NCBI GenBank assembly: GCA_016219275.1
Contig: JACRBM010000038.1
Location: forward strand, 62,001 to 126,000
Reading direction: 5' to 3'
DNA from: Chloroflexota bacterium
GTDB taxonomy: Bacteria > Chloroflexota > Anaerolineae > UBA4142
DNA length: 64,000 bases
Shown: positions 19,934 through 48,033 of the stretch, one piece after another
Layout: each line of letters starts with the position of its first letter
Numbering within the stretch: position 1 is the first letter of the stretch
Program-made: the position numbers and the translations under genes
The notes under the pieces: model-generated
Told to the model about the DNA's origin: nothing
Database searches by the model: none
What the model saw: the letters and a program-made list of their open reading frames with translations, nothing else

Positions 19934-20422
19934 TTACCCGAGTTTTCGCAATTCCGCCAAGAGGTCGGCGTTGTCGGGCAAGATGCCGGGTTCGTACAGT
20001 TTCACCCAACGAATAATACCTTGCTTGTCTACGATGAAAATCGAGCGGTCAGGACGACCCAGCTTTGGATTGAACACGCCGTACTTTTGGGCGACCTCGC
20101 CGTGGGGCCAGAAATCGGCGACGAGCGGATACGAGATGCCGCCCAACGCTTTGCCCCACGCCTGCTTGGAAAAGATGGGGTCACTGCTGATAGCCAGAAC
20201 CTGGCTATGCAATCCTTCGAATTCGGCGCGTTGCGCTTCGTAGGAAGGAATTTGCTTGTCTCAGGTCGCGGTGAACGCGAACGTGTGAAACGCCAGCACG
20301 ACATTTTTGCGCCCGCGATAGTCGCTCAGTTTGATTTCGAGACGAGCAACCTCGGGCTTGGTGATGACGCCGGGCAACGTAAAGTCCGGGGCGACTTCAC
20401 CGACGCGAAGCAGATCGGACAT
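19934..20422 (-). CDS. Selenocysteine-containing peroxiredoxin (162 aa, Sec54)
   Basis: A thiol-peroxidase of the AhpC/TSA fold with an in-frame TGA (20263-20261) read as selenocysteine. The ATG at 20422 has AAGGAG at 7 nt. Upstream of the TGA lies VAPDFTLPG and [14 protein letters not shown]; the TGA then falls exactly where the peroxidatic Cys sits after FTxx in this fold. The same frame continues with [23 protein letters not shown], and the Arg-containing [17 protein letters not shown] to a normal stop, giving the usual family length. A stem (TCCTTC with GAAGGA) follows the TGA and could be a SECIS, but is not strong. Selenocysteine peroxiredoxins are known from other anaerobes. The alternative, a nonsense mutation, is less likely because nothing else is damaged. 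Confidence 0.85.
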
Positions 20423-43376: not shown

Positions 43377-43412
43377 CGATAAATCGTACATCAAGAATCG
43401 CAAATTCTCACT
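43377..43412. repeat. Heptamer array after the intact cytochrome gene
   Basis: On the minus strand: AATTTGC GATTCTT GATGTAC GATTTAT CGGTCAC. It follows the stop codon directly and corresponds unit by unit to the array after the remnant gene at 41559-41629. Confidence 0.65.
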
Positions 43413-43995
43413 TTAGCCCGCGCGGACCCCGCGCCATCTTGACGTGGCATTCTTCGCACTGGGGATAGATCGCATCGCGAAATTGAAAGCGCGTGCGTTC
43501 GTCGCCCGGGCGATGCGCGAGGTGACAATCGGTACACCGGAGAAACGGCGGCGATTCCTGGGGGTCATAGTACTTGTTGTGCATGTGATTCTCGAACCCA
43601 GGTCGCTTGAGCGCGTCGAGGTGACACTTGATGCACGCCTCGTTTTGGAGCGGCACGATAATTTTCGCCGGTTGTTGTGCGCTGCCGGTGTAATGCTTGA
43701 GCGCGTTCCACCCGGCAAACGCGACGACGACCGCGCGTCCATCGAATCCTTCGCCGACGTGACAATCAATGCACCGCACTTGGTCTTTGCGATGGTGAAA
43801 CGCGGCGAGGTCGTCTGCCGGTCGTTGCTCGGCGCGCGCATAACGCGTGACGTACTCGACTTCAGGTTGCGTATGGCACGACGCGCAGAAACGATTGTCC
43901 TGTTCTTGATACGATACCCAGCCCACCGAGACGGCGAGCGCGGCAATACCAGCAACCACACCGAGCGCGAGAAATCTCCAACGAGTAGATTGCAT
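43408..43995 (-). CDS. NapC/NirT-type pentaheme cytochrome c (195 aa)
   Basis: A membrane-anchored multiheme cytochrome that probably passes electrons from quinol to a partner outside the membrane. Residues 8-28 form the anchor helix (FLALGVVAGIAALAVSVGWV). Five CxxCH heme motifs follow: CASCH, CIDCH, CIKCH, CTDCH and CEECH. NrfH-type proteins usually have four, so this is larger. The gene follows the sulfite-oxidase-like gene on the same strand, separated by a heptamer array, so it may accept its electrons. A 3' remnant of a paralogue lies at 41626. Confidence 0.9.
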   Translation of the reverse strand: MQSTRWRFLALGVVAGIAALAVSVGWVSYQEQDNRFCASCHTQPEVEYVTRYARAEQRPADDLAAFHHRKDQVRCIDCHVGEGFDGRAVVVAFAGWNALKHYTGSAQQPAKIIVPLQNEACIKCHLDALKRPGFENHMHNKYYDPQESPPFLRCTDCHLAHRPGDERTRFQFRDAIYPQCEECHVKMARGPRGLK

Positions 43996-44006
43996 ACAGA
44001 TCAAAT

Positions 44007-44082: not shown

Positions 44083-45216
44083 CTATCCGCGAAACTCGAT
44101 CACAATCGAGTGCGTCTTGTCCGTGCCGTTCGGAAATGCTTCGCCGAACATGCTTGCTTGTTCCGAGCGCGTTTGCGCCTTGCCGGAATTGGTCGTCACG
44201 CGCACAGACAACTGGTGTTTGCCCGGTTTGGGTGCAGGACCCGTCCACTCCCAAATCGTCCACACGTACGGCGACGGTCCACGCGTCAACCTGGTTTCCT
44301 GCCAATCACTCCGATCATTCCACACGATCTCAATTTTCGCGATACCCTCCTCGCCGCTGAACGCAATGCCCGAAAGTGTGATCGTCGGCGTCGTGACAAT
44401 CGCGTTGTCTTGCGGATCGTCAATCCGCGAGTTGGGCAGAATGAACGCGTCGTTCGACCAACCTTGCTTTTCCCAATACCCGCGATACAAACTGTCCACG
44501 AGGGTGATCGTTTGAATCCATTTGGGTTGCTTCATTCCATACCGTCCCGGAAACAAACAACGCAACGGCGCGCCGTGCGCAATCGGCAAAGGTTCGCCGT
44601 TCATTTCGTAGACGAGTAACGCGTTCGCGTGCATTCCCAGGTCGAGCGGAATGCCGGTGTCCAAACCGTCGTACGCTTCGAGTTTGATGTACTGCGCGCT
44701 CGGCTTGACGCCGGCTCGCGCGAGCACATCTTTCAAGCGCACGCCTTTCCACACGCCGTTCGAAATCAATTCACCGCCCACCGAGTTCGAGATACACTCA
44801 AGCGTTCGCATCTCGGTCACTGCCGGCATCGCCTTGATGTCGTCGAGCGAAAGCGCGAGTGGTTTATCCACCAGACCGGTAATCGCGAGTTCCCAATCTT
44901 TCGGAACTTGGAACGGATCTTGTCCGTACGACACGGTGTAGAATTCCTTGATCGGCGTAATCGGGACTGAGCGCGTGGCAGGAGTCACGCTCGGCGGCGA
45001 AACAACTGTGGGCATAACTGGCGATGCGACTGGCGTCGCGGTTGCACGCGCGATTTCCGGCGTGGGCGCGGCGCGCGTCGGCAGTGCGATAGGTTCCGGC
45101 GCACGCGTCGCCGTCGCGATTGGCTCGGTCGCGCGTTGGCATGCGGCAAGCGCCGCGCCGCCGGCGCTCAATACCAACAGCCGCACAAAATCGCGGCGCG
45201 TCAATTTTTTATTCAT
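44083..45216 (-). CDS. Sulfite-oxidase-type molybdopterin oxidoreductase, Tat lipoprotein (377 aa)
   Basis: An exported molybdenum enzyme. The N-terminus has a twin-arginine signal (LTRRDFVRLLVLSAGGAAL) ending in a lipobox (AALAACQR), so it is anchored outside by lipid. A linker rich in Ala, Pro and Thr reaches about residue 90. The molybdopterin domain (about 95-265) includes the Cys ligand in RTLECISNSVGG and LRCLFPGRYGMKQPKW. A C-terminal immunoglobulin-like dimerisation domain (about 275-377) has TLSGIAFSGEEGIAKIEI and GKHQLSVRV. The substrate could be sulfite or another S- or N-oxide. It lies between the sensor kinase and the pentaheme cytochrome genes. Confidence 0.9.
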   Translation of the reverse strand: MNKKLTRRDFVRLLVLSAGGAALAACQRATEPIATATRAPEPIALPTRAAPTPEIARATATPVASPVMPTVVSPPSVTPATRSVPITPIKEFYTVSYGQDPFQVPKDWELAITGLVDKPLALSLDDIKAMPAVTEMRTLECISNSVGGELISNGVWKGVRLKDVLARAGVKPSAQYIKLEAYDGLDTGIPLDLGMHANALLVYEMNGEPLPIAHGAPLRCLFPGRYGMKQPKWIQTITLVDSLYRGYWEKQGWSNDAFILPNSRIDDPQDNAIVTTPTITLSGIAFSGEEGIAKIEIVWNDRSDWQETRLTRGPSPYVWTIWEWTGPAPKPGKHQLSVRVTTNSGKAQTRSEQASMFGEAFPNGTDKTHSIVIEFRG

Positions 45217-45232
45217 CGGATTTGCTCACATT

Positions 45233-46438
45233 TCATTTGGGTAGCGTAAACACAAAACGACTGCCTTTGCCCGCTTCGCTTTCCGCGCGAATCGTTCCGC
45301 CGTGCGTCTCGACAATGCCGCGCGCGATCGCGAGACCCAGCCCCGCGCCGCTTCCATCGCGCGCGCGCGATTTTTCGCCGCGATAGAACGGCTCGAAAAT
45401 GTGCGGGAGGTCGTTCGGCGCGATGCCTTCGCCGGTGTCCGCGATTTCGACCTGGACACACTGGTCGCGCACGCGCGCACACACCGAAACCGCGCCACCC
45501 GCCGGCGTATGTCGAATCGCGTTCTGCAACAGATTCGACAACACGCGTTGCATCTTGAGCGCGTTGATCGGTACGGGATCAACCGACGCATCCACTTGAC
45601 CTGACAGCGTGACTTGCTTGAGCGCGGCTTGCGCTTGCATCGTCTCCAACGTGTCCGAAATTAAATCGCGCAACGAACCAGGTTCCGTGGTCCAATTCAG
45701 CGCGCCCGCGTCGAGTTGCGTCAACTCGAACAGATCGTCCACCAAACGCGACAAACTCTGAATCTCGTTTTGCGCGAGCATCAAATAATGCTTGACCGTT
45801 TCCGGTTCCGTCACCACGCCGTCGTTGATCGCCTCGATCATCGCGCGGAGCGAGGTGAGCGGCGTGCGTAAATCGTGCGATACCGCGGCGACGAGCGCGC
45901 GCCGCGCGAGTTCGAGTTCCTTTTCGCGCGCCTGCATCGCGCCGAGTTGTTGCGCCATGCGATTGAACGCGTCCGCAACCTGCTCGACTTCATCGCGCGA
46001 TTGCACGCGCGCGCGCGTCGTCCAATCGCCCGCCGCGATGTTCTCGGCGCTGTCCGCGAGCTGCGCGAGACTGCCGGTGATCGAGCGCGCCATCAATTGA
46101 CCGAATCCCAGCGCGACAAACGTCGCGAAAAAAAGGAGCACGATCAACAACCCACTGTCGTGCGCGGAGAGAAACATCGGCATCGAAGCGAACAAGATGT
46201 TGAGGAGCGTCACGCCAAGACCCAGCGCGAATGTCAGCGCGATCTTTAATTGCACACTCGCGATACCCAGGCGCAAGCCAACGCGGTACGCCGCCCAGCC
46301 GAGCGCGAGCGACACCGTTTCGGAAACGAGAAAAATTTGCGCGAGAAAAATCAAATCGTCGCGCGACGCGCCGAGCCAAAACGCCGCGAGCGCCAGCGCG
46401 CCGACCGGCGCGAGAATCCACAAGACGACGAACAGCAT
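45233..46438 (-). CDS. Sensor histidine kinase (401 aa)
   Basis: A membrane sensor of a two-component system. About four helices lie in residues 1-125. A HAMP linker follows (SITGSLAQLADSAENIAAGDW). The dimerisation and phosphorylation helix contains AAVSHDLRTPLTSLRAM (His about residue 187). The ATPase domain has MQRVLSNLLQNAIRHTP (N box), VEIADTGEGIAPNDLPHIFE (G1) and SGAGLGLAIARGIVETHGG (G2). No obvious periplasmic sensor domain is present, so it may sense the membrane or redox state. It is in the same operon as its response regulator and 16 nt upstream of the oxidase gene. Confidence 0.93.
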   Translation of the reverse strand: MLFVVLWILAPVGALALAAFWLGASRDDLIFLAQIFLVSETVSLALGWAAYRVGLRLGIASVQLKIALTFALGLGVTLLNILFASMPMFLSAHDSGLLIVLLFFATFVALGFGQLMARSITGSLAQLADSAENIAAGDWTTRARVQSRDEVEQVADAFNRMAQQLGAMQAREKELELARRALVAAVSHDLRTPLTSLRAMIEAINDGVVTEPETVKHYLMLAQNEIQSLSRLVDDLFELTQLDAGALNWTTEPGSLRDLISDTLETMQAQAALKQVTLSGQVDASVDPVPINALKMQRVLSNLLQNAIRHTPAGGAVSVCARVRDQCVQVEIADTGEGIAPNDLPHIFEPFYRGEKSRARDGSGAGLGLAIARGIVETHGGTIRAESEAGKGSRFVFTLPK

Positions 46439-46627: not shown

Positions 46628-47326
46628 TTACCGCTTACCGCTCTCAAACTTGTAGCCGACGCCCCACACGGTTGCCAGGTAACACGGGTTCGCCGCGTCC
46701 GCTTCGATTTTTTCGCGCAGTCGCCGCACGTGAACCGTCACGGTGCTCGCATCGCCAAAGAACTCGTACCCCCACACCTTGTCGAGCAGCTGCGCGCGCG
46801 TGAACACTTGCCCCGGATGTTGCGCGAGAAAATAGAGTAGATCGAATTCCTTGCTCGTCACGTCCACCGCGCGATCATTCACTTGGACGAGGCGCGTCGT
46901 CGGGTCAATCCGCAAATCGCCCAAGGCAATCGTTTTACCCGCGCCATTGTCCGGCGGAGTCGTTACTCGGCGCAACACGTTCTTGACGCGCGCGACGACT
47001 TCGCGCGGGCTGAACGGCTTGACGATGTAATCGTCCGCGCCGAGTTCGAGTCCGAGCAAGCGATCCAGTTCGTCGCCTTTCGCGGTCAGCATAATGATCG
47101 GCGTTGCGTGTTTCGCGCGAATGCGCTTGAACACGTCGAGACCATCCACTTTGGGCAGCATCAAATCGAGCACGATCAAGTCCGGTGGTTGCGCGTAAAA
47201 CGCGTCGAGCGCGGCTTGTCCATCGCGCGCGGTCTGCACGCGAAATCCATCGCGCGTGAGGTAAAGCCGCAGAACTTCGACAACTTGGGGTTCGTCGTCT
47301 ACGACGAGAATGCGTTCGCTACTCAT
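46628..47326 (-). CDS. OmpR/PhoB-type response regulator (232 aa)
   Basis: A two-component response regulator. The receiver (1-120) has the acidic pair (VVDDEP), the phosphorylated Asp in LIVLDLMLPKVDGLDV (about 54), Thr in IIMLTAKG and Lys in YIVKPFSPRE. The winged-helix domain (135-230) has VDVTSKEFDLLYFLAQHPGQ and VTVHVRRLREKIE. It is transcribed away from the selenothioredoxin gene. Four 11-bp-phased repeats lie in the spacer between them (47361-47403), the typical site for this class. Confidence 0.95.
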   Translation of the reverse strand: MSSERILVVDDEPQVVEVLRLYLTRDGFRVQTARDGQAALDAFYAQPPDLIVLDLMLPKVDGLDVFKRIRAKHATPIIMLTAKGDELDRLLGLELGADDYIVKPFSPREVVARVKNVLRRVTTPPDNGAGKTIALGDLRIDPTTRLVQVNDRAVDVTSKEFDLLYFLAQHPGQVFTRAQLLDKVWGYEFFGDASTVTVHVRRLREKIEADAANPCYLATVWGVGYKFESGKR

Positions 47327-47460: not shown

Positions 47461-48033
47461 ATGAAAACCGCGATCCTGCTCGCGCTCGTCGTCGTCGCGC
47501 TCTTGTTCGGCGCGGGCGCGTGGCAAGCCTGGCGCAGGTCAGCGACCGAGGATGTTGCGAAAGCAAAACCAATCGCACCCACCGCTGCCCCGCGCGGACC
47601 ACTCGCACCGGAGATTGCGAGCAATACCTGGCTGAATTCTGCGCCGCTCGCGCCGAACGACCTGCGCGGTCATGTCGTCGTCGTCGAGTTTTGGACGTTC
47701 GGCTGAATCAACTGTCGCAACAAAATCCCTAGTTTGAGGGATTGGCACAACAAATATCACGCGCAAGGTCTCGTCGTGATCGGCGTCCACTCGCCCGAGT
47801 TTGGGTACGAGCAGGATGTCGCCAACGTGCAACGCGCGATCAACGAGTTGAACATTCCGTACGCGGTCGCGCTCGATAACGATTTTAGCATCTGGAAAGC
47901 GTATAAAGTCTGGGCATGGCCCTCGATGTACATCCTCGACAAGCGCGGAGCGATTCGGTTCACGCATGTCGGCGAAGGCGCGTACGCGGAATCGGAGCGC
48001 GTGATTCAAGAATTGTTGAAAGAACCATCATAA
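47461..48033 (+). CDS. Membrane-anchored thioredoxin-fold selenoprotein (190 aa, UxxC, Sec82)
   Basis: A redoxin facing outside the membrane, with an in-frame TGA (47704-47706) read as selenocysteine. Residues 1-22 are a signal anchor, followed by a linker. The active site is VVVVEFWTFG-U-INCRNKIP, so UINC replaces the usual CINC (CxxC). After the TGA the fold continues (DWHNKYHAQGLVVIGVHSPE, VALDNDFSIWKAYKVWAWPS with the cis-Pro region, and YILDKRGAIRF). A 7-bp stem (AATCCCT with AGGGATT, 6-nt loop) 17 nt after the TGA fits a bacterial SECIS. AGGAG precedes the start. A frameshift or dead gene is unlikely because the frame is intact on both sides. Confidence 0.9.
47704..47743 (+). promoter_or_regulatory. 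Sec codon and SECIS-like hairpin
   Basis: TGA at 47704-47706; stem 47724-47730 with 47737-47743, loop AGTTTG. Distance and loop size match bacterial SECIS elements, which are read within the coding region by SelB. Confidence 0.75.

What the first reader, a model, noticed from the sequence alone, without database searches (positions are those of the whole stretch)
47461..48033. Envelope thioredoxin with UxxC active site and a clear SECIS-like stem
The CINC active site of this redoxin family appears as TGA-I-N-C. A 7-bp perfect stem with a 6-nt loop sits 17 nt after the TGA. Two independent Cys-to-TGA sites in 28 kb, both at redox-active positions, make chance mutation very unlikely.
Basis: partly seen in the sequence, partly recalled or inferred. 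Interest (0 to 1): 0.75.

Follow-up and report, generated by a model that had tools for sequence, protein, structure and literature searches.

The report
Selenocysteine-containing DipZ-like envelope redoxin
A stop codon inside a membrane-anchored thioredoxin-like gene is almost certainly read as selenocysteine, because the same stop, a matching RNA hairpin and the selenocysteine machinery recur in dozens of related bacteria; it adds a well-supported member to a known kind of selenoprotein.

Summary
An in-frame TGA at 47704-47706 replaces the first Cys of the CINC active site in a 190-residue redoxin ORF (47461-48033, +). A 7-bp stem with a 6-nt loop starts 17 nt downstream. The stem alone is weak evidence: 4.8% of all TGAs in the window have one as good. 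Comparison settles the matter. Of 81 genomes of the class with close homologs, 47 have TGA at exactly this codon and 34 have Cys. Among distinct sequences, 39 of 41 TGA forms have a bSECIS-type stem of at least 7 bp (0.9 expected from synonymous recoding), against 2 of 51 Cys forms (0.7 expected). Helix positions show paired (compensatory) changes. The genome has selA, selB, tRNA-Sec(UCA) and selD. The protein is closest to the thioredoxin domain of mycobacterial DipZ, as a stand-alone, N-terminally anchored form. Homologs often lie beside an OmpR-type two-component pair, and 5 of 21 are followed by msrP and msrQ, suggesting extracytoplasmic protein repair (inferred). UxxC redoxin selenoproteins are already catalogued: a new member of a known kind.

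The parts
47461..48033 (+). Selenoprotein gene: 190-residue DipZ-like redoxin (PF00578 AhpC-TSA / PF08534 Redoxin), UINC active site
47467..47520 (+). N-terminal hydrophobic helix (AILLALVVVALLFGAGAW), probable signal anchor
   Evidence: hydropathy 2.58; helix in model
47704..47706 (+). In-frame TGA, residue 82 (Sec), aligned with Cys in the Cys homologs
47713..47715 (+). Resolving Cys85 of the UxxC motif; near-universal in homologs
47724..47743 (+). bSECIS-type hairpin: 7-bp stem, 6-nt loop AGUUUG, G in second loop position, loop 24 nt after UGA
46628..47326 (-). Divergently transcribed OmpR-type response regulator, recurrent neighbour of the redoxin
45233..46438 (-). Sensor histidine kinase paired with the regulator, recurrent neighbour
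44083..45216 (-). Probably exported molybdopterin oxidoreductase (PF00174), nearest to SorA/SoxC sulfite dehydrogenases but below cut-offs; distant relative of MsrP

Best explanation
The gene encodes a genuine selenoprotein: an N-terminally membrane-anchored, outward-facing thioredoxin-fold protein of the DipZ-like redoxin type, with selenocysteine as the attacking residue of a U-I-N-C active site. SelB with tRNA-Sec(UCA) decodes the UGA, guided by the hairpin 17 nt downstream. The selenol/thiol pair most likely reduces disulfides or oxidised protein residues outside the cytoplasm. The recurrent neighbours (an OmpR-type two-component pair and, in several relatives, msrP-msrQ) suggest a role in an oxidant-induced extracytoplasmic protein-repair system. 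Shown here by comparison: the conserved TGA, the conserved hairpin, the sel genes, the sequence match and predicted fold, and the gene neighbourhood. Inferred: actual Sec insertion, topology, reductant, substrate and the link to methionine-sulfoxide repair (the role alone I put at about 0.5; the confidence below is for the selenoprotein claim).
For: TGA at the same codon in 47 genomes and Cys in 34 of the class, and no other in-frame stop in the matched region; in the same family TGA in 3 genera and Cys in 2. bSECIS-type stem of >=7 bp in 39/41 distinct TGA forms (expected 0.92) against 2/51 Cys forms (expected 0.74); stem energies differ, p=2e-11. In 37 TGA forms of the main register seven of the eight inner positions pair in 35-37 sequences and the eighth in 32; compensatory types occur (CG/GC, TA/GC, CG/TA, TA/CG), and the loop is GTT or GGT in all 37, as in the published bSECIS model. 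Own genome: selA, selB, tRNA-Sec with anticodon TCA, and selD all above cut-offs. All 37 TGA genomes at least 90% complete have selA; selB is also nearly universal. Downstream of the TGA dN/dS is 0.16-0.30 against TGA relatives. Best PDB matches are DipZ C-terminal domains by sequence (2.6e-33) and by fold (1.1 A, 38% identity); the helix of the active site starts at residue 83 in a model of pLDDT 90. Neighbourhood: two-component genes in 13/21 loci; msrP followed by msrQ in 5/21, over NCBIfam cut-offs where tested.
Against: No experiment shows Sec in the protein. The window's own hairpin is in a different register (6-nt loop) from the majority, and the sister form L043 has only 4 bp at -6.7 kcal/mol, which misses the published energy limit. 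selA is common in Cys genomes too, so co-occurrence is only weakly informative (p=0.075). One TGA genome, G314 (78% complete), lacks both selA and selB hits. In the window the molybdoenzyme is not an MsrP, so the repair role rests on relatives.
Confidence: 0.95

Rival explanations
1. Premature stop: a sequencing error or recent nonsense mutation in an ordinary CINC redoxin gene, i.e. a pseudogene or truncated protein.
For: The codon TGA is one step from TGC/TGT, and Cys homologs are common.
Against: The same TGA is in 47 genomes from many families of the class, and single-TGA homologs occur in further groups of the phylum; it is always the same codon in the class, with purifying selection downstream and a co-conserved hairpin.
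Confidence: 0.02
2. TGA is read through by something other than Sec (Trp or Cys by near-cognate suppression, or a general TGA reassignment).
For: Read-through of TGA occurs in some lineages (general knowledge).
Against: A complete sel system including tRNA-Sec(UCA) is present. The window's other long ORFs are open under the standard code, so there is no sign of a general reassignment. Cys is the only alternative residue seen at the position, and a conserved bSECIS hairpin would not be needed.
Confidence: 0.02
3. The selenoprotein is real, but its role is cytochrome c maturation or general disulfide reduction (ResA/CcmG/TlpA-like) rather than oxidised-protein repair.
For: ResA is the best NCBIfam hit though far below its cut-off; ResA structures match at about 2 A; a multihaem cytochrome c gene lies at 43408-44004.
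Against: The recurrent neighbours are two-component and msrPQ genes, and no cytochrome c maturation gene was recognised among the recurrent clusters. DipZ is clearly closer than ResA by sequence and fold.
Confidence: 0.3

Closest known systems
Thioredoxin domain of DipZ (Mycobacterium tuberculosis, PDB 2HYX, 5CYY)
   Same: Thioredoxin fold, CINC motif with the same surroundings, 38% identity at 1.1 A
   Different: DipZ is fused to a CcdA-like membrane domain and a further C-terminal domain (general knowledge) and has Cys; here the domain stands alone, is N-terminally anchored and has Sec
Catalogued UxxC selenoprotein families: 'Prx-like thiol:disulfide oxidoreductase' (PF00578) and 'Redoxin family protein' (PF08534), Table 1 of PMC13188914; Prx-like 1 and 3 in PMC2398784
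   Same: Same Pfam domains, UxxC motif
   Different: The catalogues are not resolved to a DipZ-like subfamily, and the main texts searched do not mention Chloroflexota, Chloroflexi or Anaerolineae; I could not fetch the representative sequences to test identity of subfamily
HprSR-MsrPQ system of E. coli (PMC9302797)
   Same: Two-component pair beside extracytoplasmic oxidised-protein repair genes; msrP-msrQ follow the redoxin in 5 relatives
   Different: No redoxin in the E. coli operon described there; in the window the nearby enzyme is a SorA/SoxC-like molybdoenzyme, and the two-component genes are not assigned to HprSR

Membership tests
Bacterial selenoprotein | In-frame UGA at a position occupied by Cys in homologs | tested here: met
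   47 TGA and 34 Cys genomes in the class
Bacterial selenoprotein | bSECIS: loop 3-9 nt, stem 4-16 bp, G in first two loop positions, 16-37 nt spacing, MFE <= -7.5 | tested here: met
   Loop 6 nt, stem 7 bp, loop AGUUUG, spacing 24 nt, -8.8 (33 nt) to -9.6 (52 nt) kcal/mol
Bacterial selenoprotein | selA, selB, selD and tRNA-Sec in the genome | tested here: met
Bacterial selenoprotein | Selenium present in the protein | not testable with these tools
   Needs mass spectrometry or 75Se labelling
DipZ-like thioredoxin domain | Thioredoxin fold with CxxC (CINC) at the start of the first long helix and a conserved Pro | tested here: met
   Model pLDDT 90, helix 83-102, Pro154 invariant, best fold match DipZ
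Full DipZ/CcdA-fusion protein | Fused CcdA-like transmembrane domain | tested here: not met
   Only one N-terminal hydrophobic stretch in 190 aa
ResA / DsbE (CcmG) of NCBIfam | Score above curated cut-off | tested here: not met
   57.7 of 170 and 35.2 of 123 bits
Canonical peroxiredoxin | Peroxidatic TxxC/TxxU motif | tested here: not met
   The protein has UINC after WTFG; the TxxU Prx is the other gene at 19934-20422
HprSR-MsrPQ-type repair locus | msrP and msrQ in the locus | tested here: not met
   Not met in the window, whose molybdoenzyme has 63 of 207 bits to MsrP; in relatives L153 (msrP) and L168 (msrQ) pass NCBIfam cut-offs, and L156, L160, L166 match by homology

The most novel reading that the evidence does not exclude
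A selenocysteine-bearing DipZ-like redoxin that is a dedicated part of an oxidant-sensing, extracytoplasmic protein-repair module (two-component system, redoxin, MsrPQ or a related molybdoenzyme) in this class of bacteria, with repeated Sec-to-Cys exchange leaving fossil SECIS hairpins in Cys genes.
Probability: 0.35. Interest if true: 0.5.

Novelty: new member of a known kind. Interest (0 to 1): 0.38.

Why it matters
Gene callers that treat every TGA as a stop will truncate or split this gene in dozens of genomes. The set of 47 Sec and 34 Cys genomes in one class, with about 15 changes on the tree (at least 6 forced by well-supported branches), is a good natural series for studying how Sec and Cys replace one another, including Cys genes that keep the hairpin. 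The gene neighbourhood gives a testable role in extracytoplasmic oxidised-protein repair for an otherwise unassigned redoxin.

Tried and rejected
Rfam scan of the window found nothing at gathering thresholds. NCBIfam gave no family above cut-off. A first codon-shuffle test whose codon pool included the hairpin region itself was too conservative (12 of 41 TGA forms at p<0.05) and was replaced by one with codons from outside the hairpin and with the published bSECIS criteria. Co-occurrence with selA was not decisive because most of these genomes have selA. Literature searches for a DipZ-type or Chloroflexota selenoprotein found no description, but the library is partial. A screen for other TGA sites two or three residues from a Cys in the window showed no further convincing candidate; the peroxiredoxin site lacks such a Cys and was found by reading a coding gap.

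Full report
The observation. The ORF at 47461-48033 (+) contains one in-frame TGA, at 47704-47706, and reads through as a 190-residue protein with the motif WTFG-U-INC. It fits the published bacterial SECIS model (loop 3-9 nt, G in the first two loop positions, 16-37 nt from UGA to the loop, energy at or below -7.5 kcal/mol; PMC13188914) with 24 nt spacing and -8.8 to -9.6 kcal/mol. By itself it is weak evidence: 89 of 1863 TGAs in the window have an equally good stem, and the z-score against shuffles is -1.09.

Machinery. The window's own genome (6.16 Mb, 97.9% complete) has selA (585 bits), selB (335 bits), a tRNA-Sec of 70.6 bits with anticodon TCA, and selD (366 bits), all above curated cut-offs; selD itself contains an in-frame TGA.

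Comparative evidence. In the same family, three genera have TGA at this codon and two have Cys. In 396 genomes of the class, 81 have close homologs: 47 with TGA at exactly query position 82 and 34 with TGC or TGT. Homologs with a single TGA also occur in other groups of the phylum (the codon position was not checked there). Of 41 distinct TGA sequences, 39 have a bSECIS-type stem of at least 7 bp against 0.92 expected if codons are redrawn synonymously from outside the hairpin; of 51 Cys sequences 2 do, against 0.74 expected (the Cys set includes some homologs from other phyla fetched). In the 37 TGA forms of the main register the stem ATTCCCTC/GAGGGAAT closes a GTT or GGT loop without exception in the loop letters. 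Inner pairs vary as pairs (CG to GC, TA to GC, CG to TA, TA to CG), while in Cys forms a third to two thirds of the sequences pair at these positions. The window and three others use a shifted register with a 6-nt loop, and one close sister (L043) has only a 4-bp stem. Two Cys genes keep a hairpin that looks like a fossil: L057 has the 8-bp stem with the loop G lost, and L029 the stem ATTCCCTG/TAGGGAAT. Sequence downstream of the TGA is under purifying selection, dN/dS 0.16-0.30 against TGA relatives. On a quick tree of 97 proteins the Sec/Cys label needs 15 changes, at least 6 of them forced by well-supported branches.

What the protein is. Pfam gives AhpC-TSA, Redoxin and Thioredoxin_8. The nearest solved structures are the C-terminal domains of DipZ by sequence (2.6e-33) and by predicted fold (1.1 A, 38% identity). 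The model is confident (pLDDT 90.4) and puts residue 82 just before the first long helix. Invariant residues include W78, T79, position 82, N84, C85 and P154. The N-terminus is a hydrophobic helix; many homologs have a hydrophobic stretch ending in a Cys of lipoprotein type, so an outward-facing, membrane-attached protein is likely (inference). A CcdA domain is absent, so it is not a full DipZ.

Neighbourhood and likely role. In the window the gene is divergent from an OmpR-type response regulator and a histidine kinase, followed by a SorA/SoxC-like molybdoenzyme. Among 21 loci examined, 13 carry a histidine kinase of the same cluster within 5 kb, most within 2.6 kb, and none at 5-7 kb. Against an assumed background of 10-20% this would be p = 1e-8 to 3e-5; the background was not measured. 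In five loci the redoxin is followed on the same strand by msrP and then msrQ; the msrP of L153 and the msrQ of L168 pass NCBIfam cut-offs and the others are 41-67% identical to them. In E. coli msrPQ is induced by hypochlorite through the two-component system HprSR (PMC9302797), and in a Bartonella plasmid a dipZ lies between msrB and msrA. An extracytoplasmic thiol or methionine-sulfoxide repair role is therefore the best guess, with moderate confidence (about 0.5), while the claim that it is a selenoprotein is strong.

The second site. TxxU peroxiredoxins are listed as an experimentally verified selenoprotein family (PMC13188914).

Known or new. UxxC proteins of PF00578 and PF08534 are listed among known and predicted selenoprotein families (PMC13188914; PMC2398784). 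I found no paper that describes a DipZ-like UINC form or selenoproteins of this class, but the library is partial and the representative sequences could not be compared. I file it as a new member of a known kind.

Noticed in passing
window 19934-20422 (-), TGA at 20261-20263: Peroxiredoxin with TxxU (FTATU); TGA conserved in 8 of 8 class homologs. Its SECIS was not analysed statistically.
   Followed up: partly
L057 and L029/L111: Cys-coding relatives that keep the stem of the SECIS hairpin with TGC/TGT in place of TGA (in L057 the loop G is also lost): likely fossil SECIS elements.
   Followed up: partly
L153, L156, L160, L166, L168: Redoxin followed by msrP then msrQ, with a two-component gene next to it: resembles HprSR-MsrPQ with a Sec or Cys redoxin added.
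   Followed up: partly
L021 (own genome, contig C52:100040-100975): selD contains an in-frame TGA, so selenophosphate synthetase is probably itself a selenoprotein here.
   Followed up: no
window 45949-46038 (-): ARAGORN reports an odd tRNA-like hit with a 4-base anticodon (gcaa) inside the histidine kinase gene; probably a false positive.
   Followed up: no
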